Of a DNA stretch of 58,072 bases, positions 22,713 through 42,400 are shown one piece after another (the stretch's first letter is position 1; each line of letters begins with the position of its first letter). The notes beneath the pieces were generated by a model, which saw only the letters and a program-made list of their open reading frames with translations, was not told where the DNA came from and did not search any database. Origin of the DNA: Lachnospiraceae bacterium (GTDB taxonomy: Bacteria > Bacillota > Clostridia > Lachnospirales > Lachnospiraceae); the NCBI GenBank assembly GCA_017482485.1, contig JAFUMV010000129.1:1-58072 (forward strand). Direction: 5' to 3'. Made by a program: the position numbers and the translations under genes.

Positions 22713-22740
22713 TTGACATTAAAAATACATGTATTATACT
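22713..22740 (+). promoter_or_regulatory. Sigma-A promoter of the first giant surface protein
   Basis: TTGACA (22713-22718), a 16-base spacer and TATACT (22735-22740). The promoter shows that a possible upstream TTG start at 22713 is not the real start. Confidence 0.7.
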
Positions 22741-22791
22741 TTGAAAAAGAACATATTTATTGTAATCATATGCCGCTGGGTGAGATATATC

Positions 22792-22806
22792 ATCCGGCTT
22801 TTAGTG
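22792..22806 (+). promoter_or_regulatory. Leader motif shared by the three giant surface genes (copy 1)
   Basis: ATCCGGCTTTTAGTG lies in the leader 36 bases before the start codon. It recurs 41 bases before the other two giant genes, while the surrounding leaders differ. Confidence 0.6.
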
Positions 22807-22841
22807 CTGGAATTGGATGGAGTTTGCAGGAGGATATGAAC

Positions 22842-25800
22842 GTGCTGCCAAATGAAGTGAAATCACAGAAAAGAAAGAAACACAGCTGGAAAGGAATAGC
22901 TGCCGGATTAATGGCATCGGTTCTGATTTTTTTAAACAGTGCGCCGACGCAGCCGGTGTCTGCGATGGGACAGGGCGTGCAGGCAATAGAACAGGATGTA
23001 TCCGAGATAGATCAGGCGGTGCTGTGCGGCTATACGGAACACATACATGATGACAGCTGCTACAGTACAAAAGAGAGCCAAACATGCGAAGTGAGCGGCG
23101 ATGTGCTGCATACTCATGATGAACTCTGTTTTGATGAGGCAGGGCAGCTTCGCTGCACGCTGGAAGAAAAGGAAGAACATATACACACAGAGGCCTGTTA
23201 TGAGATTAGAAAAGACACTAACGAAGACAGAGAAAATCAGTCCGCCTCTGAACAGGAAGCTTCGCAGTCTGAAAGCTTTCCGGAAAGCGAAAGTACTCCG
23301 GAAAGCATAGGCGCGTCGGAAAGCGGAAGTACTCCGGAAAGCACAGGTGCGCCGGAAAACGAAAGTGCTCCGGAAAGCGCAGGCGCGCCGGAAAACGAAA
23401 GTGCTCCGGAAAGCACAGCCTCTTCGGAAAGCGAAAGTATCCCCTCGCCGGAAAGCTCCCATGCGCACACGGCGGATTGCTATGGGGTGGATTACGATGT
23501 TTTGAACTGTGAGTTAGAGGAAGCAGAAGGCCACACGCACAGCGATGACTGTTATGGAAAGAAGCTGATTTGCCAACAGGAAGCAGAAGCCCAGTCAGAA
23601 GGCAATGCATTCTTTTCTGATGAACAGCAAAAACTGCCGGAAAGCAGTGAAGAACAGCCAGGCGAAGAAGAAAGCCTGCCGGAAAGCAGCGAAGAACAGC
23701 CAAGTGAGAATGAAAGCCTGCCGGAAAGCGAAGAAAAAATTCTGATCTGCGGCAAAGAAGAGATCATTGCGCATGAACATACGAAAGACTGCTATGAGGG
23801 GGAAATGCTGATCTGCGAGCAGACCGAAATCATAACCCATCAGCATGAGGAATCCTGCTTTTCGAGCAAAAAACTGACCTGTGAGCTTAAAGAACATACC
23901 CACAGTGCAGAGTGCTATCTGGGAAGAGAACTCACCGAAGAGGAACACAAGCAAATCGATGAGGTGATTGACTTAATTGATGCCCTTCCCGCCAGTGAGG
24001 AAATCGAAGCGAGGATTGCAGAATATGAGGATGCCGAGGATGAAGACGGCCTGACCGAATATCTGACTCAGGTAAAAAAGCAGACGGTCAAAGCGTGGAA
24101 AGCGTATGATAAGCTGGGCAAGATCCTGCAGCTGAATGTGACCAATTCCGATAAGCTGATGGAATTGGAATGGCTCTGGAGCAGTGCAGCGCTGGAGGAA
24201 GAGGAGAATGATGCATCTGTCATAAAAGAGTCTCTGGACGGTGATTACGCTTATCTGCGCGATGTACAGATCAAAACAGTTTCAGGAAAATCTGCGATCA
24301 AGACGGGAACCTCTCCTTTTGATGCAACAGAAGGCGCAGGAAATGATACCTCTGCGGATGATTTGATTCTGCGCACCTTTGACACGGCAACTTATACAAT
24401 TGAATATTATACGAGCCTGCGCCAGGAAGTTATTGACCAGAACATTTCCGGATACAAACAGGGCCGGGTTTATTTTGAATTCATCCTGCCTCTTTCGGAA
24501 GAAGAAGCGCAGTTTGAAACCGGCAGCATGCTCTGGCTGGAATCTTCCCAGGAAATCAAGTGGGAGAAAAAAACGGTTGATAAGGTGGGACAGGTGCTTC
24601 GGGGCAGCTTTCTGCTGGTGCCAAATGAAGATAACCCGGCGGCTATCGGCGCCAGTCAGAATGAACTCAGCGTTGTGATTCGCGCTCTGCGGATGCAGAA
24701 TGAAGAAAAAATGGTGCCCAAGTTCACGCTTTGGCTGGAATATAATGATGTGGGAACCACCTATGCAGACGGAATCCCTCAGTCTATTGTCACAGACAGC
24801 AAACACAGCTGCACCGGAAAAGATACAGATGAAACGGAGCACGGACAGGAATACAGCACCATAACCGCGCCGGATATTACAATTTCCGCCGCGCCTCTTT
24901 ACAACGTTGCAGTCGTGGAATGCAAAAATGCGCAGAATACGGTGATCGGAACCTATGATTTTAATACCGGCAGCGCAAATGCTGTTAACTACGGAATGGG
25001 CTCACAGTATGGACGCCTCACAGCCAGCGGACTTCTGGTTGAAATCAGAGGAAAGTCGGGCCAGGGACTGCGGGGAGTGGAGCTGCCTTCCACAAAGCAT
25101 CCCATCAAGTTTACCCTGAAATTATCTTCCTATTATAAACCCGCGACCGGGACAACAGACCCCGAAATTGATAAAAACTATCAGGCGCTGCTTTACAGTG
25201 CAGGGGGAAACAGCAGCGGAAACGGTGACAACCCTGACGGACGTAAGGTGGACGCTTACAACAAGTCTGCATTGATGGTTCCATACAACAAACTGGTTGC
25301 CAATTCGGCTTACAAAAGCTGCGCGGACGGCGGCAGCTGGAGCTTTGAGGCAGTGAGCGGTCAGCCGGGAACCTATCAGGTTACGGTTAAGGATTTTAAG
25401 ATTGATACATCCCAGTTCCCGCAGACTTATGTAGACGGCACCACCAGCAGCACGCTGTATTACAATCCGGGTAAGGTCGATAACTGGTGGGATATTGAAA
25501 GAGCGGTATTTTCTGCGGCCGAGCTGTGGGTGGTTCAGCCCTATAACAGCACGGGCGAAGACAAAAACTATATAGTGAATGCCTATGGAGTGGAAGGACA
25601 GTTCTTCACCGAAATCAGTATTTCTGATTTTTCCATGACTTCCGAAAGCGGCACTTCTGTCACCACCCAGACGATTACGACAGATGACAGCGAAAGCTTC
25701 GGTAAATATGTGAAAAATCCGGGTTCCATAGATGCTTATATCGCCTATTTGAAAAACAAACCGGCTTCCTGGGATGATGCGCTGACCGAAGGCGCCGCCA

Positions 25801-28800
25801 GAACGGATAATGACTGGGCAACAGCCGGTCAGGGCGTTACCATCCGTACACACACCGCGTATCGGGATAACGATGGAGAATATCTGGCGGTTGGCTTTGA
25901 TACCCTTGTCAAGTTTGATGACGAGTTTTTTGAACCTGACGGAGACGGAAGTAGCGTTGGATATAAGTTCAATAATACCAGTTATCTGATCAATGGAAGT
26001 TCATGGAGGCTTCTGTGGGCGGCAAAGCCGGATAAGACCGGCTGGACGAATGACGAAGAAATGAAAAAGGCCACAGAGGATGACCTGGTCTATTATACAA
26101 CGCTGGAAGACTTAAAGAATGCGGGCGCGGTTTGTGTCGGTGCGCTGGCGGAATGGCGAGGAGTACAAAGACCCGGCGGTCATAATGTCATGCTTTATCT
26201 TTACGGCCATATCAAAAAGGACTGTCCGCCGAATCAGGTTTACATGACAACCCAGTGCAATTATGCATGGCGCAAAAAAGACGTGCAGAATCTGGTGGCT
26301 GCATATTATAAAACCTCAGCAGAGCAGCTGACGGATTCCCAGTATCTGGAGTATATGACAAAAGTTTTTCCCTCCCGTCAGACGCAAAGTCAGACGATGC
26401 TGGATGGAGAGCATCTTTTTACAGAAGACTATCCTCAGCCCTTCTGGCGCCATGACTACTATTGTACCAACGGCACCGGCAAGATTACGGACACGGGAAG
26501 GGAATATCTGGAAGATACCGGCGGCAGCAGAACCTGCAGTAAAGCAACCTATGATGAAAACGGTTATCATCCCGGAACAGGCGCGAATGCCTACCAGGAC
26601 TCCTGTCTGGTAGTTCCTTATGAAACAACGATTACCAAATCAACGGCGCAGAAAGAAAAAGGGGCCTCCACCGCGAAAAAGGTTTATGACATGAACCAGA
26701 ATCAGAGAACGGTAGACTTTGTTCTCTACCCGAAGATTTCCAGAACGCTGGGAGAAGGTGTATCCGGCGCCGGAACGCTGGAAACGGTGGTTCACGTGGA
26801 AGATACGCTGCCCAAAGGACTGACCTATATCAACGGTTCCGCCTACCTGGGCGGAAGCTATGAACAGGATCCTCTGCATCAGAAGCAGGGAACCATAACC
26901 GGCGGTATTCAGGAACGGGATGGGAAAGACGCAGAAGGAAATTATCTGTTGCAGGAAGAGCTGACAGTCAATGAGGATGGAACGACTACGATACGCTGGA
27001 GTTTTCCTGTCACTGTGAATGCCAACACCCCGGAATGGACAGAGCCGATTCGATTTTCCTGTACCATCGGTACGCCGGGAGATGAAACGACAGACGTGCA
27101 GCACCAGCAGCTTTTGACCAACACGGTAAAAGTATGGTCTGACGGGGAAGCAAAGCGGGAATTTAAGACGGAATACGGAAATGTGGCACAATATGGAATT
27201 CAGATTCAGAAATCCGGCGCGCTGTCATTGTCAAAGCTTGCGGATCAGCTGCTGGTGAACTGGTGGGATCCTATGGGATTCACCATGAATATCGGCAACA
27301 ACTCCAGCACTACCAAAGAAAATGCGGTGATTGTGGAATCAATCCCATGCAATGGAGTCAACGGAACCGCTTTCCATGGAGCGTTGAGGATTACGGAATT
27401 TTCAGCAGGAACGCTGGACTCTGACGCAAACTCGGATACGCTGCTTGCTGATTTTCAATTTTATTATACCAGCGATGAAGCCTATAAAGGCTGTTCCAGT
27501 GCGAGCCTGATTGCCGCCAAAACGGATTTTGCAAACAATGACAAATGGAAAGAACTGATACTGTCTGACGGTGCAAATACGGAAAGCGGACGGCCCTATG
27601 GTTTGTTTAAAACCACAGGGGGAAAAGCCTTTCCGGCAGAAGTGGATCAGACCAGTCAGATTACAGCCATTGTTGCAGTGGGAGATCTGCCGGAAAATAA
27701 GACTCTGAAAATGCATATCACGTTTGCGCTTGCTGAGGGTGAGGCCCAGGATAAGCTGGTCAACTACCTGTCTCAGGAATCTCTGGTTTCTTCTGCCCAG
27801 ACCCAGGTGGTGAACCGCACGCTGGAAGGCCTGGCCTGGAATGATGTGAATGCCAATGGAAAACAGGAGGACAGAGAAAGCAGAATTTCCGGCATTTCGG
27901 TATCTCTGTGGAAGCTGAAAACAAATGGTGATTCATCCAAGGCAGAGGACTATGAGGCATATTGCTATCCGAATTCTCAGACGCAGATCATCATTGAGAC
28001 CGGAAAACAGATCAGCGTTCAGGCGCAGAACAGCACCGCTGCTGCAGATTATGAAGCAGGACGGTACCGGTTTACAGACCTGCCTGCGGGAACCTATGCG
28101 GTGAAATTTACAGGCGGCACCAAGGCAATTAAGGACTATATGGCATCGCCTGCAAACAACATCTTAGATGATTCGCTGGATTCAGACGGAATTGCGGTTT
28201 ATACGGATAATGCGGATCTTGAATGCACCATGATCCGGGGAATTGTTCTAAAAGAAGCAAAAGAGCTGACTTCAGGAACCGGAGAATCCAAGTATCATGA
28301 CAGCGGCTTTTATGATGCGGTTTATGACCTGACTGTCAGCAAAACGGTGGAGGGCAACCTGGGAGACCGAAATCAGGCCTTTGCCTTTGTGATTACACTT
28401 ACGGACAGTAAGAATGCTCCCCTGACAGGAACATTCACCTATACCGGTTCCAGTATGATAGATGGAAAGGAAGATACGGATGGCGGAGCGATTTCTCTGA
28501 ATACGCAGGGAGAAGCGACCGTTTACCTCAAACATGGACAGTCAATCACAATAAAAGGTCTGCCCAAGTACTGTTCTTATAAGGTTGAGGAATCTGACTA
28601 TACCAGCGAGGGGTATGTGACTTCAAAAACAGGTGAGGATGCGTGCACTGGTGTGAAAAGTAATCACGAGGTAAAATTTACCAATATACGACAGGCAACC
28701 CCGCCCACCGGTATCATCGTGGATGTATTACCCTATGCGTTGATGGCCCTGCTTGTCCTTCTGACCGGCGGAACATGGATTTTCTTTTCCGTGAAAAAGA

Positions 28801-28817
28801 AACGCCGCAGATCGTAA
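22842..28817 (+). CDS. Giant Cys/His-repeat surface protein, Cpa-like pilus tip candidate (paralogue 1)
   Basis: A 1991-residue wall protein. After a signal peptide (to about residue 46) come eight C...HxHx3C[YF] motifs between about 60 and 358, interrupted by a Pro/Glu/Ser-rich stretch (ESAPESAGAPENESAPES). A conserved helical segment follows (GRELTEEE to LEWLWSSA, about 363-448). A long beta-rich body contains VEDTLPKGLTYINGSAYLGG. An SdrD_B-like domain (RTLEGLAWNDVNANGKQ) begins near 1658. A Spy0128 C-domain-like module (YDLTVSKTVEGNLGDRN) starts near 1826, and the sorting signal TPPTG with hydrophobic segment and KKKRRR tail is at 1953. I chose GTG 22842, eight bases after AGGAGG; ATG 22836 is the alternative. 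It stands alone on its own promoter. Confidence 0.85.
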   Translation: MLPNEVKSQKRKKHSWKGIAAGLMASVLIFLNSAPTQPVSAMGQGVQAIEQDVSEIDQAVLCGYTEHIHDDSCYSTKESQTCEVSGDVLHTHDELCFDEAGQLRCTLEEKEEHIHTEACYEIRKDTNEDRENQSASEQEASQSESFPESESTPESIGASESGSTPESTGAPENESAPESAGAPENESAPESTASSESESIPSPESSHAHTADCYGVDYDVLNCELEEAEGHTHSDDCYGKKLICQQEAEAQSEGNAFFSDEQQKLPESSEEQPGEEESLPESSEEQPSENESLPESEEKILICGKEEIIAHEHTKDCYEGEMLICEQTEIITHQHEESCFSSKKLTCELKEHTHSAECYLGRELTEEEHKQIDEVIDLIDALPASEEIEARIAEYEDAEDEDGLTEYLTQVKKQTVKAWKAYDKLGKILQLNVTNSDKLMELEWLWSSAALEEEENDASVIKESLDGDYAYLRDVQIKTVSGKSAIKTGTSPFDATEGAGNDTSADDLILRTFDTATYTIEYYTSLRQEVIDQNISGYKQGRVYFEFILPLSEEEAQFETGSMLWLESSQEIKWEKKTVDKVGQVLRGSFLLVPNEDNPAAIGASQNELSVVIRALRMQNEEKMVPKFTLWLEYNDVGTTYADGIPQSIVTDSKHSCTGKDTDETEHGQEYSTITAPDITISAAPLYNVAVVECKNAQNTVIGTYDFNTGSANAVNYGMGSQYGRLTASGLLVEIRGKSGQGLRGVELPSTKHPIKFTLKLSSYYKPATGTTDPEIDKNYQALLYSAGGNSSGNGDNPDGRKVDAYNKSALMVPYNKLVANSAYKSCADGGSWSFEAVSGQPGTYQVTVKDFKIDTSQFPQTYVDGTTSSTLYYNPGKVDNWWDIERAVFSAAELWVVQPYNSTGEDKNYIVNAYGVEGQFFTEISISDFSMTSESGTSVTTQTITTDDSESFGKYVKNPGSIDAYIAYLKNKPASWDDALTEGAARTDNDWATAGQGVTIRTHTAYRDNDGEYLAVGFDTLVKFDDEFFEPDGDGSSVGYKFNNTSYLINGSSWRLLWAAKPDKTGWTNDEEMKKATEDDLVYYTTLEDLKNAGAVCVGALAEWRGVQRPGGHNVMLYLYGHIKKDCPPNQVYMTTQCNYAWRKKDVQNLVAAYYKTSAEQLTDSQYLEYMTKVFPSRQTQSQTMLDGEHLFTEDYPQPFWRHDYYCTNGTGKITDTGREYLEDTGGSRTCSKATYDENGYHPGTGANAYQDSCLVVPYETTITKSTAQKEKGASTAKKVYDMNQNQRTVDFVLYPKISRTLGEGVSGAGTLETVVHVEDTLPKGLTYINGSAYLGGSYEQDPLHQKQGTITGGIQERDGKDAEGNYLLQEELTVNEDGTTTIRWSFPVTVNANTPEWTEPIRFSCTIGTPGDETTDVQHQQLLTNTVKVWSDGEAKREFKTEYGNVAQYGIQIQKSGALSLSKLADQLLVNWWDPMGFTMNIGNNSSTTKENAVIVESIPCNGVNGTAFHGALRITEFSAGTLDSDANSDTLLADFQFYYTSDEAYKGCSSASLIAAKTDFANNDKWKELILSDGANTESGRPYGLFKTTGGKAFPAEVDQTSQITAIVAVGDLPENKTLKMHITFALAEGEAQDKLVNYLSQESLVSSAQTQVVNRTLEGLAWNDVNANGKQEDRESRISGISVSLWKLKTNGDSSKAEDYEAYCYPNSQTQIIIETGKQISVQAQNSTAAADYEAGRYRFTDLPAGTYAVKFTGGTKAIKDYMASPANNILDDSLDSDGIAVYTDNADLECTMIRGIVLKEAKELTSGTGESKYHDSGFYDAVYDLTVSKTVEGNLGDRNQAFAFVITLTDSKNAPLTGTFTYTGSSMIDGKEDTDGGAISLNTQGEATVYLKHGQSITIKGLPKYCSYKVEESDYTSEGYVTSKTGEDACTGVKSNHEVKFTNIRQATPPTGIIVDVLPYALMALLVLLTGGTWIFFSVKKKRRRS

Positions 28818-29622: not shown

Positions 29623-32600
29623 GTGCAGCATAAGTTATTGAAACAGCAGGCTGTAAGGAAAAACAGAAAATACAATTGGAAAAGCGTAGTGGCGACAGCT
29701 GTCGCGGCAGTTTTAATTATTACAAACTGTGCGCCGCTGCAGTCCGCAATTGCGATGGGAACAGAAGAAAAGAAAGTATTTTGCGGACTTGTTGAACATG
29801 AGCATACACAGGACTGCTTCGACCCGACCGTGGATGAGGCAGTGAGAGGAACCTTATGTTCTTTGGAAAATCTCGGTGTCCATGAGCATGAAGAGGGCTG
29901 TTATGACGAGAGCGGAAATGTGATTTGCGGGCTGGCAGATTATGTGCTGCATACACATACGGAAATCTGTTATGACAGTGATGGAGAACTTCGCTGTACG
30001 CTGACGGAGCGGCAGGGGCATGTTCATACAGAGGAATGTTATGAAGCTGCTGAGTCGGACTCTAACGAAGACGAAGAAAAAGAAGATGCAGAAAGCAGAG
30101 AATCCGAAGAAAGTCAAGCGGCAGAAAGTTCGCAATCCGAAGAGACACATGTCCATACAGATGCCTGCTACGAGGAAGGGCCGGGAGAACTCATCTGTGA
30201 GATGGAAGAAAATCATCATCATGGAGAAGAATGCTATGTAGTCTCCGGCGAAAAGCTGATCTGTGGAAAAGCGGAGACAGAGGGACATACGCATACAGAA
30301 GGCTGTTTTAAAGATAAGCTGATCTGTGGGCTGGAGGAAACCGAGGGCCATATCCATGATGATGCCTGCTATGTATCGGACCAGATTCTGGAATGCACTC
30401 TGGAAGAAAAAGCAGGCCATGCGCATGAAGACAACTGTTATACCACAGAGAAATCTTTGACCTGTGCGCTGGAAGAGAATGAAGAACATTCTCATGATGA
30501 TGGCTGCTACACAGAAGAACAGAAACTGACCTGCACTCTGGAGGCCAGCGAGGGTCATACCCACTCGGAAGGCTGCTACAGGACACAACAGCGGCTGATC
30601 TGTGAAGAGAAAGAGGCCGAAGCGCACAGTCATACGGAAGAATGTTATGTCAAAGAAACAGAACCTTCCTGTGGGCTGGAGGAAAGCGAAGGCCATACCC
30701 ATGATAAAAGCTGTTACGAAGAAAACAGAGAACTGATATGTGAATTGGAAGAAGATCACGTTCATAGTGACAGCTGTTATGCAAAGAAGCTGATTTGCGA
30801 AGACACAAATCAGGAGGAATCCGGTGAAGAAAGTGATGCAGCGGATGAATCGAAAGAATCGGAATCTTCAGGGGAAGAAGGATCCGAAGAAGAGATAAAA
30901 GAGTCGGAATCTGCTCCGGAACCCGATCAGGAACGCAAACTGGTCTGTGAACTGGCAGAAGAAGCCGCACACGAACATGGCGAGAACTGTTATGACGGTG
31001 AAATTCTGATCTGTGGACAACTGGCCGCAGCAGAGCATGTTCATACCGAAGACTGCTTTAAGCCCCTTGGTATTCTCTGCGGTCTGGAAGAGCATAAACA
31101 TACTGCAGAATGCTATCTGGGAAGAGAGCTGACCGCAGAAGAGCAGGAGCAGATCAAAGAAGTGATTGACCTGATCGATGCCCTTCCTACAAGTGAAGAA
31201 ATTGAAGCAAAGATTGCAGAATATGAGGATGCCGAAGATGAAGACGGCCTGACCGAATATTTGACTCAGGTAAAAAAGCAGGCGGTCAAAGCCTGGAAAG
31301 CTTATGACAAGCTGGGAGAAATCCTGCAGCTGAATGTGACCAATGCAGAGAAGCTGATGGATCTGGAGTGGCTGTGGAGCGCTGCTGATCTGGGAGAGAA
31401 TGTAGGGGATTTCCCGGCAATGACATCGGATGAGGCGTATGTCTCAGCTTTAACAATTGCTGGCTGGTCGACCGGTACATCGCCGTGGGATGAAGATAAT
31501 GAGCCTGGAAATGATAAAGATGAAAATAATAACATTGTACGCACTTTTGATACCGTAACATATAACTTCAATGTGACGATGGAGGCTTATGACAGCCAGC
31601 ATTTCAGCGAAGCTCGGGTAAAACTGGAATTTGTACTGCCTTTAACCAAAGATCAGGCGGAATTTGATACCGGTGCTATGGGGTGGATGGATACGGCATC
31701 CGGATACAAGTGGTCAGTCACAACGGAGAACCGAACGATTGATGAAAAGACAGTATCCTGTCAGGTATTAACCTGCTACAAACATTTGCTGCCCGCTGAA
31801 AATAACAAGATTGTGGTTCCGGGTGAATTCGGTGAAAACGTAACCATCAAAATCAAGGGAATGAAAAATGGGGATACCTTGTCTCCCGTTTTCAGCGCTG
31901 CGATGGAATATGGTACCTGGGATGGTGAATGCAGTGAACATAACAGAACAGAAAAGAAAAGTATTACTCCGGACAGGGTGACGGTCAGCGCTGCGCCGAA
32001 ATATAACGTAAAGCTGACAAAAGGCAACAACGTTCAGGTAAAAATGAATTTCGATTTTGACGGCACGGGGAATGCGCTGGCGCTGAATAAAGCAGCGAAA
32101 GATGTGGAAGGTCGCAGTACCTCCTATGGAATTACGTTACAGCTTTATAATGACAGTGCAGAAAAAAAGCTGAAAGGAATCGAATATCCTCAGGGGGATA
32201 TTACTTTTGACATAAAGCTGACTTCAAAATTCACGCCAAACAGCGGAAGCACCAAAGGAACACAAACTGACGTGACACAGGATTACACACCGCTGGTGTG
32301 GAGCTTTGATGCGCATAAGAGCGGATCAACGCAGCAGGATGGCCGCAATGTTGCCATGACTACTTATACCGATGCATTTGGCAGCAAAACGCCTCATAAT
32401 AAGCTTGGAAATCCCGACAGCAGTTGCTATAACGGCGGTACCTGGAAAGCAACGCAGGAAGGAAATGTGATCCATGTCACTGTATCGGGATATCTGTTTA
32501 ACGGGGAATTCCCCTGTGTAGGCTCATCGGAAAGCACAAGTGAGGCGACTTTTTACAATAAAGAAGCCGGAATCAGGAATATCGGATGTTTTTCTGCCGG

Positions 32601-35600
32601 CGAACTTCATCTTGTGCAGCCTTTTTCTAATAGTAAAACAGGAAAAAGTGTTTTAGATGATTTTTCAAAAGACGGTGCCTATGAACAGTTTGATTCTGCA
32701 GATGATGGTTCTTTTGAAATGAAAGCGGAGGTCGTGAATCTGCGGGCAACCTCTGTCAGCAATCAGTCTTTGAAAATTGTGGAGGATAATTCAAACCAGG
32801 GATGTACAACGGATGATAAACCTACTACAACAATTAATATAAAACGGCCGGGCGGTTATCAGAACAGACTGCTTTACAGTAATCCTGGTTCTTGTTCCAT
32901 GACTGATGTAAGGGGCATCGGGGAAGGAACTGCAGGAACGATGGCAATGAATGGTGATGACTGGGCTGTTCTTGGACAGAAAATACGCCTTACCCTTGGG
33001 GGCTATGCAATTACCGGCGGGGATGACGGAAATAAAATGTGCGCTGCAAAATGGCTTCTGAAATTTGAACCGGAAGCGATTGAACTGGAGGAACAGACAG
33101 CTGCCAATGATATGTCCAAAAACAATTACAGTTATACGTTCGCTTATGCAGTGAAACCTGATGGAAGCGGATGGACGAATGATGAAGAACTGCTCCGTAC
33201 CAATATGTTTGCGCTGAAATATTACAGGACGATCACGGAGGCGAAGCAGCACGGAGAAATTGTGGGTATTCTGGTGGAGGCTGAGCCCAAAACCACTGTG
33301 GAAGCTCTTCCTTTTGGCAATATTACAACTTATTTTTCGCAAAATGCAAAAGTAAAGGCAGATGCTTCTCTGGCGGGAAGAACTTTCATCATCACGGAGG
33401 AATCCAGAATCTGGACGGTGAATGATTATAATGAAACAATTGAAGAATATAATAAAATTCCCTCCATGCTTGAGAATGATCCGACAAATGGAGAACTGGA
33501 AAACAAACTGGAAGCCTGCAGAACTCATAGGGTGAACAGTCCATCCACATACCAGCCGAAAGTATACAATACAGATGGAACAACGCAGAAAGAGCATACC
33601 GGCAGCTATACTTTGGGAGACACTTTGCTGGTGCTGGATTATAAAGCGCGCATCAATAAGTATCTGGAACAGAAAGATTCGGAAGAAAACACAAAAACTA
33701 CCTTTAATCTGGATGCGGATCAGCGCTTTGTGGATTTTACACTGGAACCGATACTGAAATATGCAGAAGGTTATAAACCTGATGAGCTGAATCAGAAAAC
33801 CACTGTGAAAATTGTGGATATCCTGCCGAAACATCTGACCTATGTGCCAGGCTCCTGCTATTTTGGAGGAACCTATCAGCAGACATCTGTAAATGGCGGC
33901 ACAAAGGGAACCATCACCGACGGAAAAAAGGTGGAACCAAACAGTGTGGAGAAGAATCAGACGACAGGCGAAACTACTTTAACCTGGATCATTGAAAATG
34001 CGACGGTTGGCGGCACGGTGGATCTGATTCATTATTCCGTGGAAATCGGAGATAAGGGAAATGAAGCAAATGATGTAAAGATAGGAACCACAAATTTTAC
34101 AAATAAAGTTGAGATCACAACAACGGAAGATTTTCGCACTCCCACCGCAAAAGACGGCAATTATGCTGAAGTGGGACTGGTTGCCACAAGAGGCAGGGCG
34201 AGTGCCTACGGAAAATATGTAAAACAGAGTCTGGTAGAGCCGGATGGAGAGATTGATTACACCATCTATTATGACAACAATTCTCAGGCACAGATTCCCC
34301 AAATCGTGCTGCTTGACACAATGCCTCAGAATAATGACGGAAATACTTCCGGCAGCAGCTTTAATGCGACTTATAAAATTACAAGCTGGAAACTGAATGT
34401 AAGCAAATACTGCGGAAGCGGACAGAGCGCTGCAAATAGAGTTCCGGGCAACTTAAAACTGTATTACACGACAGATGCCAAATATAAAGGGCTGGTAATG
34501 CAGGAAAATTCGCAGGGAACCACAAATCATACCGGGGTGATAACCCGAAGTGAGATTAGTTCATGGACGAAAGTGGAGATTGCGTCAGACGGAACCGCAT
34601 CGGGAATTGTGGGGCAGATGCCCACTGCATGGGCTGTTCTGGGACCTTTGGATAACGGCAGAAGCATCAATATCGACATGACAATCAAACTGACGCCGAA
34701 TGCGGATACTTCTTTTACAGCAGAGACTGCAAAATATGTGAACATCCTTTCCAATGAGGATTTTACTACCTCCACACTGGTACAGAGTGTGCGGCGGACT
34801 CTGGAAGGAATTGCCTGGCTGGATACAAATGCAGATGGTCAGCAGAACGATGGTAATACCGGGATAAACGGTATCAAAGTGATTTTATATAAGGATAACA
34901 AAAAAGTATGTGAAGTGGAAACCGGAAAACAGATCAGTATTTTGGGCGGTGAGGCTGTTGTATATGAAAATGGACGTTACCGTTTCACCGATTTGCTCCC
35001 CGGGACATACAAAGTTCAATTCGAGGGCGGAAGCACCGGGATTAATGATTACTTTGCGTCTACAGCGAATAAAACAGGTGTCGCGGATGAAGTTGATTCC
35101 GATGGTATTCCCTCATATGCGCAGGATGGAAAAGTCCTGGAGAAAACGATAATTTCCGGTATTAATATGAAGACTGCCCAGGAACTTGGTGTGACCGTAT
35201 ATGAGTCTAAATACAATGACAGTGGTTTTTATCCTGCAGTGTATGATCTTACGGTAAGTAAGCAGGTTACAGGAAACATGGGAGACCGAAATAAAGAATT
35301 TACCTTTGAGATTCTTTTGAAAGAATCGAAAGAACAGGATGCAAAACCTCTTACGGAAACCTACAGTTACACCAGAGAAAACTCAGTTTCAGGGGCATCG
35401 GAAAAGGGAAAACTCACAGCGGATTCAAACGGTAAAATAACGTTTCAATTAAAGCACGGAGATGCATTGACGTTGAAAGGTCTTCCCAAACACTGCACCT
35501 ATGAGGTTTCGGAAACGAACGATTCAGTCAAGGGATACAGGTGCAGCTGGTCCGGGAATCGAAAATGTGATGATCTGCAAAGCGATAAAGCAATTGTGTG

Positions 35601-35757
35601 CACAAATCATGCGGAAAGCACCCCGCCCACCGGCATTATCGTGGATGTTCTTCCGTATGTGCTGATCGCACTGCTGGTACTTCTGGCAGGCGGCGCATGG
35701 ATTTTCTTCTCTGTAAAAAAGAAACGTCGCAGGAAACAGAGCGATGATGAAAAATAG
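29623..35757 (+). CDS. Giant Cys/His-repeat surface protein, Cpa-like pilus tip candidate (paralogue 2, pilus operon)
   Basis: A 2044-residue wall protein that opens the pilus operon. A signal peptide (ends near SAIAMG, residue 46) is followed by seventeen C...HxHx3C[YF] motifs between about residues 52 and 497, nearly continuous apart from two acidic Glu/Ser stretches. Then come the conserved helical segment (about 500-586), a long beta-rich body with VDILPKHLTYVPGSCYFGG, an SdrD_B-like domain near 1725 (RTLEGIAWLDTNADGQQ), a Spy0128 C-domain-like module near 1874, and sorting signal TPPTG at about 2000 with a KKKRRRK tail. The PPTG signal mirrors streptococcal Cpa (VPPTG). Start is GTG with AAAGGAG eight bases ahead. 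The signal-peptidase-like gene follows after 10 bases. Confidence 0.88.
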   Translation: MQHKLLKQQAVRKNRKYNWKSVVATAVAAVLIITNCAPLQSAIAMGTEEKKVFCGLVEHEHTQDCFDPTVDEAVRGTLCSLENLGVHEHEEGCYDESGNVICGLADYVLHTHTEICYDSDGELRCTLTERQGHVHTEECYEAAESDSNEDEEKEDAESRESEESQAAESSQSEETHVHTDACYEEGPGELICEMEENHHHGEECYVVSGEKLICGKAETEGHTHTEGCFKDKLICGLEETEGHIHDDACYVSDQILECTLEEKAGHAHEDNCYTTEKSLTCALEENEEHSHDDGCYTEEQKLTCTLEASEGHTHSEGCYRTQQRLICEEKEAEAHSHTEECYVKETEPSCGLEESEGHTHDKSCYEENRELICELEEDHVHSDSCYAKKLICEDTNQEESGEESDAADESKESESSGEEGSEEEIKESESAPEPDQERKLVCELAEEAAHEHGENCYDGEILICGQLAAAEHVHTEDCFKPLGILCGLEEHKHTAECYLGRELTAEEQEQIKEVIDLIDALPTSEEIEAKIAEYEDAEDEDGLTEYLTQVKKQAVKAWKAYDKLGEILQLNVTNAEKLMDLEWLWSAADLGENVGDFPAMTSDEAYVSALTIAGWSTGTSPWDEDNEPGNDKDENNNIVRTFDTVTYNFNVTMEAYDSQHFSEARVKLEFVLPLTKDQAEFDTGAMGWMDTASGYKWSVTTENRTIDEKTVSCQVLTCYKHLLPAENNKIVVPGEFGENVTIKIKGMKNGDTLSPVFSAAMEYGTWDGECSEHNRTEKKSITPDRVTVSAAPKYNVKLTKGNNVQVKMNFDFDGTGNALALNKAAKDVEGRSTSYGITLQLYNDSAEKKLKGIEYPQGDITFDIKLTSKFTPNSGSTKGTQTDVTQDYTPLVWSFDAHKSGSTQQDGRNVAMTTYTDAFGSKTPHNKLGNPDSSCYNGGTWKATQEGNVIHVTVSGYLFNGEFPCVGSSESTSEATFYNKEAGIRNIGCFSAGELHLVQPFSNSKTGKSVLDDFSKDGAYEQFDSADDGSFEMKAEVVNLRATSVSNQSLKIVEDNSNQGCTTDDKPTTTINIKRPGGYQNRLLYSNPGSCSMTDVRGIGEGTAGTMAMNGDDWAVLGQKIRLTLGGYAITGGDDGNKMCAAKWLLKFEPEAIELEEQTAANDMSKNNYSYTFAYAVKPDGSGWTNDEELLRTNMFALKYYRTITEAKQHGEIVGILVEAEPKTTVEALPFGNITTYFSQNAKVKADASLAGRTFIITEESRIWTVNDYNETIEEYNKIPSMLENDPTNGELENKLEACRTHRVNSPSTYQPKVYNTDGTTQKEHTGSYTLGDTLLVLDYKARINKYLEQKDSEENTKTTFNLDADQRFVDFTLEPILKYAEGYKPDELNQKTTVKIVDILPKHLTYVPGSCYFGGTYQQTSVNGGTKGTITDGKKVEPNSVEKNQTTGETTLTWIIENATVGGTVDLIHYSVEIGDKGNEANDVKIGTTNFTNKVEITTTEDFRTPTAKDGNYAEVGLVATRGRASAYGKYVKQSLVEPDGEIDYTIYYDNNSQAQIPQIVLLDTMPQNNDGNTSGSSFNATYKITSWKLNVSKYCGSGQSAANRVPGNLKLYYTTDAKYKGLVMQENSQGTTNHTGVITRSEISSWTKVEIASDGTASGIVGQMPTAWAVLGPLDNGRSINIDMTIKLTPNADTSFTAETAKYVNILSNEDFTTSTLVQSVRRTLEGIAWLDTNADGQQNDGNTGINGIKVILYKDNKKVCEVETGKQISILGGEAVVYENGRYRFTDLLPGTYKVQFEGGSTGINDYFASTANKTGVADEVDSDGIPSYAQDGKVLEKTIISGINMKTAQELGVTVYESKYNDSGFYPAVYDLTVSKQVTGNMGDRNKEFTFEILLKESKEQDAKPLTETYSYTRENSVSGASEKGKLTADSNGKITFQLKHGDALTLKGLPKHCTYEVSETNDSVKGYRCSWSGNRKCDDLQSDKAIVCTNHAESTPPTGIIVDVLPYVLIALLVLLAGGAWIFFSVKKKRRRKQSDDEK

Positions 35758-35767
35758 AGGAGGAAAG

Positions 35768-36340
35768 ATGCCTAAGAAAAATAAACCGCAAAACACACAA
35801 ATAAGCCCGGAAAAGGCAGAAATTAAAAAAAGCCGCGCTCCGGAAACCAGAGAGCTTCTTTTAAGCTTTCGGGATCTTCTGGTGAAACTGCTTGTGATAA
35901 TCATCGCATTGTGGCTGATTTTTACACAGCTGTTCGGCATGGCGGTCATGCGCGGAGAATCCATGTATCCGCGCATGAGAGACGGTGATCTGATGATTTT
36001 TTATCGACTGGAAAAGGAGTATCACATCGGTGATGTGGTGACTTTTCAAAAGGATGGAGAACGTTATACGGCACGGATTGTTGCCGCCGGCGGCGATCTT
36101 GTAAGTTTCAGTGAAAACGGGGAGCTTCTGGTGAACGGAAATATCCAGCAGGAAGAAATTTTCTATCCCACCACAGGAGAAACTCTGGAAATTGAAGTTC
36201 CATATACCGTAGGGGCGGACAGCTATTTTCTGCTCTGCGATTTCCGTACCAATGCAAAAGACAGCCGCCAGTACGGGGCAGTCTCAAAACAAAATCTGGA
36301 TGGCAAAGTGATCACAATTCTTCGAAGACGGGGAATATAA
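35768..36340 (+). CDS. Signal-peptidase-I-like protein of the pilus operon (SipA-like)
   Basis: A 190-residue type I signal peptidase homologue with one N-terminal membrane anchor (LLVKLLVIIIALWLIFTQLF). The nucleophile Ser65 is kept in RGESMYPRM, but where active enzymes have Lys in YxKRVxGxPGD this protein reads YTARIVAAGGD, with Ala102 in the Lys position and Arg103 next. In S. pyogenes, SipA next to fctA also lacks catalytic residues and acts as a pilus assembly factor rather than a peptidase. AGGAGG precedes the ATG at 35768; an in-frame ATG at 35744 inside the previous gene is less likely. The pilin gene follows. Confidence 0.88.
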   Translation: MPKKNKPQNTQISPEKAEIKKSRAPETRELLLSFRDLLVKLLVIIIALWLIFTQLFGMAVMRGESMYPRMRDGDLMIFYRLEKEYHIGDVVTFQKDGERYTARIVAAGGDLVSFSENGELLVNGNIQQEEIFYPTTGETLEIEVPYTVGADSYFLLCDFRTNAKDSRQYGAVSKQNLDGKVITILRRRGI

Positions 36341-36370: not shown

Positions 36371-37522
36371 ATGATGAAAACAAATTTGAAAAAAGTATGG
36401 AAAGCATTATCAATGATGCTGGCAGTGGTGCTTTTGGTTGGAACTGTTGGGCTGCAGGCGTTGGCGGAGGAAGATGAATCTGGAACGAATGGAACAGGCA
36501 GCAGTAATACGGTGACGCTGTATAAGTATCTGACAATGGACAAAAATGCCAATGTGCCAAATGCAACGTTTAAATTTAGTATTGCGCAGGGAACTGCGAT
36601 TGATGCTACAAATAGCACTCCGAAGGTGGAGCGGGGCGTCATTGAAGCTGTTAAATTTATCGGTGCCAATAGTGATGGAACGGTCAATATTACATTTGGA
36701 CCTGGGGACAACACTGAAGAGATTGCTTCAACGAATCAAAAAAAAGCCAAAAAGGAAATTAAGGTTGAAATCGATGTAACAAAGTTTTCTGCGCCTGGCA
36801 TTTATCGTTATGTAGTGACTGAGACAGATACCAACAATCAGGGTGTTACCAATGATGGCCCGAAAGATAGAGTTTTGGATGTCTATATTAAAAGCGATGA
36901 TGCTGGTGTATTATCTTTTCAGAGTGCCGTTTTACATAAAGGAACAGAGATTAAAGATGGAGAAAATGAAACTTATGGGGATAACAAGTCAAATAGCTTT
37001 ACCAATGAGTATAAAACTGCTGATCTGACAATTTCCAAGACTGTTACAGGTAATCAGGGATTCAGAAGTAAATATTTCCAATTTACAGTAAATATTACTG
37101 GTGCAGTTGCCGGAACTATTTATACAGTAGATTTAAGCAACGCAGCAGCTTCTGTAAACGGAAATCAAAATCCCTCTGCTTTGACTGTAGGGACTAATGG
37201 AAGTGTTACCGGTAACTTTTATCTGAAACATGGTGACAGTATTGTTATTCAGGGGTTAACTGAAAACACACAATATGTAGTAAGCGAAGATAATGAAGAT
37301 TATAAAGCGAGCTGTCAGATCGGAACTGCTGCGGCGGTAGACAAAAATACCACAGATACGCAAACAATGGGCAATACTGACGTAACCGTATCCTTCACCA
37401 ACCACCGTGAAGGCACCGTCCCCACCGGCATCCTCGTTGACGTTGCTCCTTACATCCTGATCTTCCTGCTTGCAGGTGCAGGCTTCGTCGTGCTGTTTGG
37501 CAGAAAGCGTCGCAAAGCGTGA
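36371..37522 (+). CDS. Major pilin, FctA/Spy0128-like
   Basis: A 383-residue two-domain pilin. The signal peptide ends at about ALA32. Domain one has Lys52 in TVTLYKYL and the E-box Glu151 in YRYVVTE, the partners expected for an intramolecular isopeptide bond. Domain two (LTISKTVTGNQGFRSKYFQF...LKHGDSIVIQGL...YVVSEDNEDY) matches the C-domain of Spy0128. The sorting signal TVPTG (350-353) is followed by VDVAPYI and a basic tail, close to Spy0128's EVPTG...VAPYI. The sortase downstream should polymerise it. The body is AT-rich while the last 150 bases are C-rich. GTG of the sortase gene overlaps the stop. Confidence 0.9.
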   Translation: MMKTNLKKVWKALSMMLAVVLLVGTVGLQALAEEDESGTNGTGSSNTVTLYKYLTMDKNANVPNATFKFSIAQGTAIDATNSTPKVERGVIEAVKFIGANSDGTVNITFGPGDNTEEIASTNQKKAKKEIKVEIDVTKFSAPGIYRYVVTETDTNNQGVTNDGPKDRVLDVYIKSDDAGVLSFQSAVLHKGTEIKDGENETYGDNKSNSFTNEYKTADLTISKTVTGNQGFRSKYFQFTVNITGAVAGTIYTVDLSNAAASVNGNQNPSALTVGTNGSVTGNFYLKHGDSIVIQGLTENTQYVVSEDNEDYKASCQIGTAAAVDKNTTDTQTMGNTDVTVSFTNHREGTVPTGILVDVAPYILIFLLAGAGFVVLFGRKRRKA

Positions 37523-38328
37523 CAGATAAAACGAAGACTTCAAAAAAAGGAATAAAGATTGCGCAGGCGGCTGTCGATCTGGCAGACAGAATTCTGACAG
37601 CTGCCGTGGCGCTCATGCTGATTCTTTCACTGTGTTACAGCGGGTATGCGCTGTGGGATACCTGGCAGATCTATGAAGGGGCCGGCGTGGACGAAAATAT
37701 TCTGGCTTATAAGCCTCAGCTGGATGGTGGCGAGGCAGAAATGACATTTTCGGAGATTCTGGAAATTAATCCGGATGTACGCTGCTGGCTGACAATAGAT
37801 GATACAAAAATTGATTACCCCGTAGTTCAGGGAAGCGATAATGTAAAATATGTCAACACCAACATTTACGGAGAGTTTTCCCTGTCAGGAAGCCTATTTC
37901 TGGATTACAGGAATGCATCTGACTTTTCGGATTTCTATTCCTTAATTTACGGACATCATATGGAAGCGGATGCGATGTTTGGAGAACTGATGCATTTTGT
38001 GGAGGCAGATTACTTTAACGAACACCAAACCGGAGAACTTCTGCTTCCGGGAAATGGATATGAACTGGAAATTTTCGCCTGCCTGCAGACCGATGCCTAT
38101 GATACGAAGGTATTTTATCCGAATATCTCAGAGGAAACAGAAAAAGAAGATTTGCTGAACTATTTAAAAGAAGAAGCAGTCCAATACCGCGATATTGGTG
38201 TAACGACAGCCGATCAGATTGTTGGATTGTCAACCTGTTCTGATGCGTCCACGAATGCGAGGACCGTTGTATATGCCCGCATGAAAGAAGTATCAGAAGA
38301 AAATGAGGAGGTGCCAAAAGCATCATGA
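37519..38328 (+). CDS. Class B sortase (pilin polymerase)
   Basis: A 269-residue sortase with one N-terminal membrane helix (ILTAAVALMLILSLCYSGY). The catalytic residues are His146 or His147 in YGHHM, Cys240 in LSTCSD and Arg248 in NARTVVYAR, in the order and context of class B enzymes (TLSTC-like motif, long N-terminal region). Located between an FctA-like and an FctB-like pilin, it most resembles the pilus sortase SrtC of FCT-3 streptococci, itself class B, which joins VPTG/VPPTG signals to pilin lysines. GTG start overlaps the pilin stop; the stop overlaps the next ATG. Confidence 0.92.
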   Translation: MTDKTKTSKKGIKIAQAAVDLADRILTAAVALMLILSLCYSGYALWDTWQIYEGAGVDENILAYKPQLDGGEAEMTFSEILEINPDVRCWLTIDDTKIDYPVVQGSDNVKYVNTNIYGEFSLSGSLFLDYRNASDFSDFYSLIYGHHMEADAMFGELMHFVEADYFNEHQTGELLLPGNGYELEIFACLQTDAYDTKVFYPNISEETEKEDLLNYLKEEAVQYRDIGVTTADQIVGLSTCSDASTNARTVVYARMKEVSEENEEVPKAS

Positions 38329-39191
38329 AAAAATGGAAAAATTGTATTCTTTTGCTGACTTTGCTCCTTTTTCCGTTGTTTTTTAGTGTGCAGAGCAAAG
38401 CAGCTCAACAGCTGCCGACCGTTGCGATAAACATTCCGGTAGAAAAGAAGCTGACAGGTGATAAGCCGCCGTCTGTAGAGAACTTTATTTTTATTTTAAA
38501 AGGGGAAGATGCAACCACTCCCATGCCGGCATCTGATTCGAACGATATGGATTCGTTGGGAGTGACAGCTACATTGACAATTGCCGGAACCGGAACCGGT
38601 TCATTCGGGACGATTGTTTATGCAGAGCCCAATGATTATCATTACACGATAACGGAAGAGCAGGGCAGCGCGGAAAATTACACCTATGATTCCACAGTGT
38701 ATAACGTAACCGTGCAGATTACATCAGATGATAATGGTGCTCTTTCTGCGCAGGTTTCGATGTCGAAGGACGGCGAAACAGGAAAAACAGACCGTGCCGT
38801 ATTTCATAACAGCTATAAGGAGCCGGAACCGGAATCCTCAGAACCGTCCTCAGAACCGGAAACGGACCCGTCCGAGCCGGAGTCCACACCGTCCGGAGAA
38901 CCCGAATCCACACCTGCCGGCGAGCCGGAATCGACTTCTGCCGGAGAACCCGAATCAGAAACTGAAAAACCGATTCCCACCATCAGCAGCGATACGCCCA
39001 TGGATTCCGGAATTTTTGACAGCATAGGCGGTGTTCTTGGTTCCATGCGAGGTGTTCTCGGTTCTCGTGTAAGAACCGGAGACGACTCCATGACATTTGC
39101 AATTGGATATATTTTGCTGGTAATTGCCATGGTCGGACTGATTGCTTTTGTAGTGATCAGAAGAAGAAAACATTCCCGGAAAGAAAAATAA
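38325..39191 (+). CDS. FctB-like minor pilin / base pilin with Pro/Glu/Ser stalk
   Basis: A 288-residue wall protein. A signal peptide ends near SKA (27). One FctA-type domain follows (about 30-165: VAINIPVEKKLTG...FIFILKGED...YTITEEQG), with VEKKLTG Lys and TITEE Glu as isopeptide candidates. About 55 residues of ESTPSGEP/ESTPAGEP-like repeats form a stalk. The C-terminus RVRTGDDS, hydrophobic helix and RRRKHSRKEK make a sorting signal unlike the PTG signals of its neighbours. Place, size and proline-rich tail match FctB, the wall-linked base pilin that a housekeeping sortase anchors. ATGA overlap with the sortase gene and GAGGAGG support the start; it is last in the operon. Confidence 0.85.
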   Translation: MKKWKNCILLLTLLLFPLFFSVQSKAAQQLPTVAINIPVEKKLTGDKPPSVENFIFILKGEDATTPMPASDSNDMDSLGVTATLTIAGTGTGSFGTIVYAEPNDYHYTITEEQGSAENYTYDSTVYNVTVQITSDDNGALSAQVSMSKDGETGKTDRAVFHNSYKEPEPESSEPSSEPETDPSEPESTPSGEPESTPAGEPESTSAGEPESETEKPIPTISSDTPMDSGIFDSIGGVLGSMRGVLGSRVRTGDDSMTFAIGYILLVIAMVGLIAFVVIRRRKHSRKEK

Positions 39192-39477: not shown

Positions 39478-42400
39478 ATGCAGAAAAAGTTTTTTCAGTA
39501 TCATACCGAAAAGAGATTCGGTAAATACAATTGGAAAAGCATTGTTGCGTCCGCTACCGCTGCGGTGCTTATTGTTACAAACTGTGCACCTCTGCCGTCT
39601 GCAGCGGCAATGGAAAACGGAAGAGAGGTGTTATGCGGTTATACAGAGCATACCCATACGGAGGCTTGTTATGATGAGAGCACGGAAATGATTTGTGGAG
39701 CGGATGATTCTGTGCTGCATACGCATGGGGAGATATGCTATGACCGAAACGGTGAACTGCGCTGCACATTGACAGAGCGAATAGGGCATACGCATACAGA
39801 AGAGTGCTATGAAATCACAAAACAGGACTCTAACGCAGATGGAGAAAATCAGGAAGGCAGTGAGGAAAGTGCCGAGAGCGTCAATCCCAACAGTGCCAAT
39901 CCGGACAGTACCAATTCCGACAGTACCAATTCCGAAGGCGGCGAAGTGGCGCATGTTCATACGGATGCCTGTTATGAAGAAGAACTGATCTGCAGGATGG
40001 AAGAAAATCACGTTCATGGGGAGGAGTGTTACGAGAACTCTTCTGTGTTGATTTGTGAGTCTGCGGAAAATCAGGAAGATCATATCCATGGGGAAGAATG
40101 CTACGAAGAAGCAAAAGAACTGATTTGTGAACTGGAAGAAAATCATGTCCATGGAGAGAACTGTTATGAACGAAACCTGATCTGTGAAAAGACTGAGCAG
40201 GATGATAACGTACCGGAAAATGCAGAACCAAACGAACAACCGGAGTCGGATAAAGCGTCCGAATCAGCCGATGCAGCAGAGTATGAACCGGGGGATTCTT
40301 CTGAATCAGCCGATACACCGGAAGAAAACGGCGAACCTTCTGAAACGCGCAAACTGATCTGCAGCCTCCGGGAGGAAACGTTCCACGAACATGATGAAAA
40401 CTGTTACAACGGGGAAGAGCTGATCTGTACCCGGCCGGTTCTGACAGCGCATGTACATACCGAAGAATGTTTTCAGACAGTTGGACTGATCTGCGGGCTG
40501 GAAGAGCACACGCACAGTGCCAAATGTTATCTTGGAAGAGAATTGACAGACAAAGAGCAGGAGCAGCTCAGCGAGGTGATTGCGCTGATTGAAGCGCTCC
40601 CTTCCAATGAAGAAATTGAGAAAAAGGTTGCGGAATTTGAGGAAGCCGAAGATATGGACGGCCTGGAGGCTTATCTGGCAGAAATCAGGCGCCAGGCACT
40701 AGCTGCGCAGGAAGCTTATGAAAAGCTTGGAGAGATTCTGCAGATGGATGTGCTCAATGCAGAAAAGCTGATGGACCTGGAGTGGCTCTGGAGCATGATT
40801 ACATTGGAGGAACCTCCGGAAATAAAAGTATTGGAGGGGGATGAAGCCTATATCAAAGCCTTTCGTGTCAACAGCTATCTGACCGGGACCTCGCCATGGG
40901 ATGATGATGACGAAGCCGGCAATGACAAAAGCGAAAACAATGATGTTGTCCGTTCTTTTGATACCATATCCTATGTTCTGGAACTGAAAATGGACAGCTA
41001 TAATGAGGATTCTTCCGCCAGCACCAGTTTTTCAAGGGCCAGAGCATGCTTTGCGTTTGTGCTTCCGGTAACAAAGGATAAAGCGGAATTCGCGGTGGAC
41101 AGTATGGCCTGGATGGACACGACATCAGGATATGAGTACCGGATCGCAGAAGAAAACGGAAAACAGATCCTTTACTGCAGCCGTCTGATGACACCGGCGG
41201 ATGACGACAGCTATGTGATTCCGGGAACCAAGACGGTCAATGTGAATATCTATGTGAAGGGCATGCATCAGGGGGAAATAGTACAGCCTGAGTTCTATGC
41301 CTGGCTGGAAGGAAATGATGTTCATTCTGATAACTGGTCAGCAGAAGCGGGGGTTTACAGCGATGTTGTTTTGGATGATTCCCGTGTCTGTGATGCACAT
41401 CAGCAATATGCTGTAAATCACGGTAAAGAAATGTGGAAAGCTGTAAGTGCCGAAATCGCAGTTTCTGCCAAAATGAAATTGAACGTGATGCTTACCGGCA
41501 TAACGGATAACGGCGTGGGGACCTGGGACTTTTCATCCGGAAATGAAAAAGCGGTCAATAAATCTTATGGAAAGATTGACGGCAAGGCCTTCCAGATCGG
41601 CATTGCGCTTCAGCTGTACAATGATGCCGGAAAAGGACTCAAAGGACTGGCCTATCCGGACGGAGAACCCATAACAGTTGATCTGGCGATCGATACAGCC
41701 TTTTTTGTGGTGGAAGGTAATAAGAACAAAGAGCTGTCGCTCACCGCAGACACCTATGATTTTACCCCGCTTTTGTATACTTATGGGGAAAGTACAGGTG
41801 CCTATAAAAATGGAGATGGCAGAAACATTCAGGGGCTGTATCAGGGATATCCCTATAACGCCGGAGGAGAAAACAACACATACTGTTGTCATGACGGCGG
41901 AACCTGGAGTGCTGTCCAAAATGGAAATGTGATTTCTCTGACAATCAAAGACTATAAGTTCAGCGGAAAATTCCCCATCACTTATCCCAGTGCATCGGAC
42001 AAATCGCTTCGGACCATCGGGGAAAACATCGGTTATTTTTCGGTGGGAAGACTGGGATTCGTTCTGCCCTACTACAATGTGAGAAAAGGCGGGACAAATG
42101 GTGAGAGCAGCGATTACATCGGCAAGCTGGTCAGCGAAAGCGGAACGTTCCAGATTGACATTCGGGACAGAAATCTGGCAGCAAAATCTGCGGACAAAAC
42201 AGCGCTTGAGGCGGCCCCGACAGACAATGCCAACCAGATGGAAAAAGGCGATGACAACAGATCAATGAGATCGAGGCTGGATCCTCCCGGGACATATTCC
42301 AATGTCATTATGTACGGCAAGCGTGACATCTACAATCAAATGCAGCCCCTGACAAAGGACTGCGCCTACAATGGCCGTGACTGGACTTATGCCGGGACAA

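What the first reader, a model, noticed from the sequence alone, without database searches (positions are those of the whole stretch)
29775..31120. Expanded C...HxHx3C[YF] repeat arrays at the N-termini of the giant surface proteins
Seen: the motif [IL]xC-x(5-10)-HxHx3C[YF] occurs 8, 17 and 10 times in the three paralogues (from about 23.02, 29.78 and 39.63 kb). Each unit has two Cys and two His, separated by acidic spacers such as ELEENHVHGEECY. Extracellular Cys is rare in anaerobic Firmicutes, so dozens in one exported protein are notable. Inference: each unit could chelate a metal (Zn, Cu, Ni) or heme iron, or make a chain of small disulfide loops, giving a metal-scavenging or stiff pilus tip. 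I know of no characterised function for this array.
Basis: partly seen in the sequence, partly recalled or inferred. Interest (0 to 1): 0.85.

Follow-up and report, generated by a model that had tools for sequence, protein, structure and literature searches.

The report
Cys2His2 repeat array on pilus tips
Three giant pilus-tip-like proteins of a bacterium probably related to gut Clostridia begin with chains of small two-cysteine, two-histidine units that look like metal-binding beads; the same chains recur on surface proteins of many gut bacteria, and no description of them was found.

Summary
In detail: HxHx3C[YF] occurs 8, 17 and 10 times in the three paralogues (shuffles at most 1), with about two Cys and two His per unit. 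Arrays recur in many Clostridia and one Atopobiaceae MAG, mostly directly after the signal peptide of sorted surface proteins. Inside arrays, 529 of 536 C[YFW] carry both His. Spacings are quantised and array ends favour a short x4 unit, as in a capped repeat fold. The window arrays sit in a SipA/FctA-like pilus island; a fourth, in the same genome, in a different pilus operon. No Pfam, NCBIfam or PDB match covers the array. Best reading: a chain of Cys2His2 metal sites, probably zinc, at the pilus tip. VKOR and DsbA were not found in this genome, which speaks against enzyme-made disulfides. AlphaFold was locally confident in part of a three-unit stretch and failed on the long block. Metal binding and adhesion are inferred, not shown.

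The parts
29782..31116 (+). 17-motif array of the middle paralogue (protein 29623-35757): block 1 29782-30042, block 2 30148-30798, block 3 30946-31116, divided by S/E-rich spacers
   Evidence: block borders read from the translation
23025..23918 (+). 8-motif array of the first paralogue (protein in frame 22713-28817)
39634..40530 (+). 10-motif array of the third paralogue (protein 39478-45390)
29623..35757 (+). giant pilus-tip-like protein: signal segment, array, helical-looking segment, large body, SdrD_B, DUF7601, PPTG sorting signal
   Evidence: signal segment, helix and sorting signal by eye
35744..36340 (+). Peptidase_S26 signal-peptidase-like protein; the Lys of the usual KR[VI]I box is Ala (YTARIVAAGGD), so SipA-like
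36371..37522 (+). pilin with FctA and DUF7601 domains and VPTG motif, probable backbone
37519..38328 (+). sortase (class not tested)
38325..39191 (+). FctA-domain pilin, probable accessory or base subunit

Best explanation
The array is a capped chain of small Cys2His2 metal-binding units, each C-x4/7-H-x-H-x3-C-[YF], at the outer (N-terminal) end of sortase-assembled pilus-tip and related surface proteins. Proposed mechanism: after export and signal-peptide cleavage, the two thiolates and two imidazoles of each unit close around one metal ion, most likely Zn2+. A short beta bridge between the C-Y strand and the next L-x-C strand holds neighbouring units in register. The metal-stapled chain forms the exposed head of the pilus and takes part in attachment, directly or by metal-bridged contacts. 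Shown: the repeat, the joint upkeep of His and Cys, the spacing rules, the place in the protein, the gene context. Inferred: tip position, metal binding, which metal, and adhesion.
For: His and Cys behave as one unit: 529 of 536 interior C[YFW] have both His, and 586 of 594 interior HxH have the Cys. Spacing peaks: C to H 4 (256) and 7 (397) of 783 units; C2 to next Cys 8 (359) and 6 (106) of 662 (662 is my sum of its list). In 86 proteins with at least 4 motifs the first unit is x4 in 66 of 73 and the last in 50 of 75, against 100 of 534 interior units; all six array ends of the window proteins are x4. AlphaFold on three units puts a helical turn at each x3C and single bridge residues at the Tyr of CY and the Leu of LxC, with mean pLDDT 82-85 for residues 41-60. 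VKOR 0 of 54 genomes; DsbA 6 of 54, absent from this genome. Among 12 of the 17 units of the middle paralogue, DNA identity averages 52% with third codon positions at 41%, so the units look old and kept by selection. Gene context: pilus islands in the window and on contig C99, and a backbone-pilin and/or sortase match downstream in 14 of 32 named loci with room there (hand count from the rows).
Against: No metal was seen or modelled, and no coordinates were available to check ligand geometry. The ten-unit block modelled at mean pLDDT 39.3, pTM 0.20, the three-unit stretch at 65.4, pTM 0.44. No solved relative by sequence or fold. Only 96 of 153 blocks have exactly two Cys per motif and 99 exactly two His; the 0.989 correlation of Cys and His counts there is partly trivial, as both grow with the number of motifs. 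The 17-sequence alignment in which all twelve ligands are invariant was picked with a pattern that demands them, so it is no independent proof. Three of 35 window units lack their own upstream Cys. VKOR is missing from array-free genomes too, and DsbB, SdbA-like and other oxidants were not searched; 4 of 34 array-bearing genomes have a DsbA-like gene.
Confidence: 0.5

Rival explanations
1. A chain of small disulfide loops: C1 and C2 of each unit (or C2 and the next L-x-C) pair covalently, and the His pair serves another role such as pH-dependent binding.
For: Cys are even in number in 104 of 153 blocks; quantised Cys-Cys spacing; DsbA-like genes in 4 of 34 array-bearing genomes.
Against: His is kept as strictly as Cys, which a disulfide does not need. 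No VKOR in 54 of 54 genomes and no DsbA in this one. Obligate anaerobes tend to exclude Cys from exported proteins, though some make a few disulfides with DsbA-like proteins (PMC12453122, passages seen).
Confidence: 0.22
2. A metal-scavenging antenna: the tip collects zinc, iron, copper or nickel from the gut lumen and passes it to the cell, or sequesters it.
For: Up to 23 motifs per protein; acidic surroundings (E 17.6%, D 6.4% of array residues). In the own genome a P-type ATPase with heavy-metal HMA domains lies 4.4 kb upstream of the fourth array, with other genes between.
Against: A pilus tip is far from the membrane; no metal importer was seen among the 10 neighbouring proteins scanned (other window genes not scanned, and an ABC transporter of unknown substrate does follow the third array gene); blocks of only three units are the commonest C-first kind (19 of 67 at gap 20).
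Confidence: 0.13
3. A thiol-reactive adhesive: reduced Cys, activated by the neighbouring His, bond covalently with disulfide-rich mucins.
For: N-terminal place on sorted pilus-tip-like proteins, dozens of Cys, and many sources from gut and rumen by record title.
Against: The strict His-Cys linkage and spacing rules are more than a thiol brush needs. No direct evidence.
Confidence: 0.08

Closest known systems
FCT-type pilus islands of Streptococcus pyogenes (Cpa tip, FctA backbone, SipA, class B sortase; Cpa as tip partly recalled)
   Same: Giant tip-like proteins with a C-terminal stretch of about 160 residues matching NCBIfam pilus_ancill_1, FctA pilins, sortase, and a signal-peptidase-like protein lacking the catalytic Lys (SipA described in PMC4049620, passages seen)
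   Different: Three tip-like genes instead of one, each opening with the Cys2His2 array; the tip matches stay far below the family cut-off (63-72 of 600 bits)
Aap/SasG G5 B-repeats (zinc-dependent homophilic adhesion of Aap: PMC9802226, abstract seen; SasG recalled)
   Same: Long repeat region of a sorted surface protein with a metal-dependent role (proposed here, known for Aap)
   Different: [quoted passage not shown] here the unit is about 20-23 residues with four ligands of its own
Classical C2H2 zinc fingers (pattern recalled)
   Same: Two Cys and two His per short unit
   Different: Order and spacing differ (C-x4/7-HxH-x3-C); the classical pattern is absent from the window arrays; the proteins are extracellular

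Membership tests
Sortase-sorted Gram-positive pilus-tip/surface protein | N-terminal signal segment and C-terminal sorting motif, membrane helix and basic tail | tested here: met
   Window proteins read PPTG, hydrophobic stretch, basic tail (by eye); LPxTG-like motif in 24 of 30 homologous frames complete at the 3' end and over 700 aa
Sortase-sorted Gram-positive pilus-tip/surface protein | Pilin-type domains and gene neighbours (pilin, sortase, signal peptidase) | tested here: met
   in other loci pilin/sortase matches downstream in 14 of 32 (hand count)
Sortase-sorted Gram-positive pilus-tip/surface protein | Polymerised into a pilus with this subunit at the tip | not testable with these tools
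   needs electron microscopy and Western ladders
NCBIfam pilus ancillary protein 1 (NF033396) | Whole-protein score over the curated cut-off of 600 bits | tested here: not met
   72.3, 62.8 and 69.8 bits, C-terminal part only
SipA-like pseudo signal peptidase (gene 35744-36340) | S26 fold without the Ser-Lys dyad | tested here: inconclusive
   S26 match 76.2 bits; Lys replaced by Ala, but the Ser of the S-M-x-P box is still there
Classical C2H2 zinc finger | C-x2-4-C-x12-H-x3-5-H | tested here: not met
   0 in the three window arrays
c-type heme protein | CxxCH | tested here: not met
   0 in the three window arrays; 0 of 117 arrays with at least 3 motifs, window included
Rieske Cys2His2 iron-sulfur protein | CxH, 10-20 residues, CxxH | tested here: not met
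   0 in the three window arrays
Metal-binding Cys2His2 repeat | Stoichiometric bound metal | not testable with these tools
   needs purified protein

The most novel reading that the evidence does not exclude
A new extracellular metal-knuckle repeat: sortase pili of gut anaerobes carry heads made of chains of Cys2His2 metal sites with their own end caps, giving a zinc- and redox-switchable pilus tip in bacteria that otherwise avoid exported cysteine.
Probability: 0.37. Interest if true: 0.85.

Novelty: new variant of a known kind. Interest (0 to 1): 0.68.

Why it matters
Sortase pili are one way in which gut bacteria touch their host and each other. If their tips are built of metal-stapled beads, zinc availability and redox state in the gut would directly set adhesion. 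It would also explain how anaerobes with little oxidative folding make stable Cys-rich surface domains. The module is not rare (34 of 298 genomes of the window's own family, own genome included), yet has no name in the libraries searched.

Tried and rejected
Heme, Rieske and classical zinc-finger readings were tested by pattern and rejected. A viral origin found no support: 0 matches of the motif pattern in viral contigs. Recent slippage as the whole cause is unlikely, since 12 window units average 52% DNA identity; near-identical units do occur in L105. The alternative unit HxHx3CY-LxC was considered. At gap 20, blocks with a single motif are C-first/H-last in 11, C..C in 6, H-first/C-last in 1 and H..H in 1, so C-x4/7-HxHx3C is preferred, although the middle block of the window arrays starts with HxH. 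In the same blocks were irregular against 99 alternating, with 15 at fragment edges set aside; part of the irregular ones begin with Cys that seem to lie in the signal peptide (by eye).

Limits. It is rich in MAGs and not corrected for kinship, and many proteins are cut by the stretch ends. Of the 121 open frames, 5 were dropped before the unit counts (second L105 frame, L084, L026, L089, L044), and 3 window proteins and 8 earlier proteins were added (127). Frames with X were left out. The signal-peptidase profile was built from hits in the same loci. The L027 (Methanobrevibacter MAG) and L084 (Anaerospora) genomes had no array match. Whether the signal-peptidase pairing is special to arrays or common to such surface proteins was not controlled. 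One of the 8 matching relatives (G024) is a weak match in a frame with stops. NCBIfam gave one chance-level match inside an array (E 0.17).

Papers: searches; none gave a paper on this array, but only an open-access library is held. Seen: passages of PMC12453122 and PMC4049620, abstract and outline of PMC9802226; the rest as search listings.

Full report
Observation. The three giant proteins at 22713-28817, 29623-35757 and 39478-45390 carry 8, 17 and 10 HxHx3C[YF] motifs. No other frame of the window has one, and 2000 shuffles never gave more than one per protein. Array Cys/His counts are 16/16, 34/35 and 20/20. Each array has three blocks: a first block of three or four units that starts with Cys and ends with CY, a middle block that starts with HxH and ends with LIC, and a last block of three units that starts with Cys, ends with CY and runs into a helical-looking segment (LGRELTxxE). 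S/E/P-rich spacers separate them.

Context in the window. The array proteins match SdrD_B (the third one just under its cut-off) and DUF7601 near the C-terminus and end in a PPTG sorting signal. Between the second and third lie a signal-peptidase-like gene, an FctA/DUF7601 pilin, a sortase and a second FctA pilin. The signal-peptidase-like protein has Ala where the catalytic Lys is expected, but keeps the Ser. S. pyogenes SipA lacks both and is needed for pilus polymerisation (PMC4049620, passages). I read this as a SipA/FctA-like pilus island with three tip-like genes.

A second pilus in the same genome. Besides the window, the array query matched only contig C99 of this genome, which is about 90% complete. 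There the order is S26 signal peptidase, 1826-aa array protein (12 motifs by the looser pattern), GramPos_pilinBB backbone pilin, sortase. The same N-terminal array is thus used on tip-like proteins of two different pilus loci, which points to a function of the tip itself (inference).

Distribution. With the two-unit profile A1, 34 of 298 genomes of the window's family match, against 4 of 299 drawn evenly over the phylum, own genome included in both. With the 451-aa window array as query, 8 of 61 match, own genome included and one of them weak. A pattern scan of named genomes stopped at its limit with 119 stretches; the 80 listed are mostly titled as Clostridia (Lachnospiraceae, Oscillospiraceae, Ruminococcus and others), many from gut or rumen samples by title. 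An Atopobiaceae MAG has a true array. Of 90 homologous frames with at least 3 motifs and a closed 5' end, 86 have the first motif within 110 residues of the frame start (median 69), and motifs run from 3 to 23, median 7. Five complete homologues scanned carry DUF7601, SpaA, Cna_B, SdrD_B, CHAP or Gram_pos_anchor matches. A signal peptidase frame lies on the same strand within 600 bases upstream in 53 of 94 loci that have 700 bases there. A backbone-pilin and/or sortase match lies downstream on the same strand in 14 of 32 loci with 1200 bases there (hand count; in other loci such matches lay upstream or inside the array protein). In 44 of the 46 signal peptidases whose Lys box could be read (of 59, window included) the Lys is present; the two exceptions are the window gene and L119.

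What the repeat is. Over 127 proteins and 877 units, the Cys-to-His gap peaks at 4 (256) and 7 (397) of the 783 units with one Cys before them, and the gap from the CY Cys to the next Cys peaks at 8 (359) and 6 (106) of 662. Steps of three in one loop and two in the other suggest a helical turn and a beta hairpin (inference). Interior units are mostly longer than x4, but the first is x4 in 66 of 73 and the last in 50 of 75 arrays, against 100 of 534 interior units (86 proteins), like end caps of a folded repeat. Of 536 interior C[YFW], 529 have both His, and of 594 interior HxH, 586 have the Cys; several exceptions are one-residue insertions. Blocks are less tidy when cut by a fixed margin: exactly two Cys per motif in 96 and two His in 99 of 153. 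In the 17-sequence alignment A3 the invariant columns are the twelve ligands of three units plus G, D, L and two Y, but the sequences were picked by a pattern that requires the ligands, so only the extra five columns are news. Twelve units of the middle paralogue average 52% DNA identity with third codon positions at 41%, so selection, not recent copying, seems to keep the ligands.

Metal or disulfide. His would be free to change in disulfide loops; it is not. VKOR is absent from 54 of 54 genomes tested (34 with arrays, 20 without) and DsbA from 48 of 54 (present in 4 of 34 with arrays and 2 of 20 without; absent here). The absence is shared by array-free genomes, so it shows a reducing background, not an association. 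Obligate anaerobes tend to exclude Cys from exported proteins (PMC12453122, passages). c-type heme, Rieske and classical zinc-finger patterns are absent from the window arrays. Zinc is the most likely metal on general chemical grounds (recalled), but iron, copper or nickel are open.

Structure. AlphaFold on the block-1 triplet gave mean pLDDT 65.4, pTM 0.44, with 82-85 for residues 41-60, a helical turn at each x3C and single bridge residues at the Tyr of CY and the Leu of LxC (bridge partners are not given). Foldseek against the PDB found nothing at E 0.001 or better. The long middle block gave pLDDT 39.3, pTM 0.20 with 12 aligned sequences: no support for a defined long fold from this model. 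No coordinates were available, so metal geometry was not checked.

Verdict. A widespread and apparently unnamed Cys2His2 repeat, kept by selection, at the N-terminal heads of pilus-tip-like and other sorted proteins of gut-type bacteria. Metal binding is the best reading at about 0.5; its role in attachment is inferred from position only.

Noticed in passing
L020 9663-18229 (own genome, contig C99): Second, different pilus operon (signal peptidase, array tip protein, GramPos_pilinBB backbone, sortase) with the same N-terminal array.
   Followed up: yes
window about 53150-53560: The gene at 52559, which reads as a PolC-type DNA polymerase III (by eye, not scanned), has a long Ala/Gly-rich insert in its N-terminal part.
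   Followed up: no
L129, L133, L009: Related Cys/His-rich stretches of another type (CxHxHxxxC with CGY and PC[TN]) in other surface proteins; perhaps a sister repeat.
   Followed up: partly
L135 about 2.1-2.6 kb: An array is split over two reading frames within the repeat; assembly error or frameshift, not resolved.
   Followed up: no
L037, L072, L088, L130 and others: Array followed by a CHAP-type amidase domain or a look-alike (VAxSQLG); Pfam showed CHAP in L037, the only one of these four scanned.
   Followed up: partly
window 38325-39191: The accessory FctA pilin has an S/E/P repeat stalk (ESTPSGEPESTPAGEP...).
   Followed up: no
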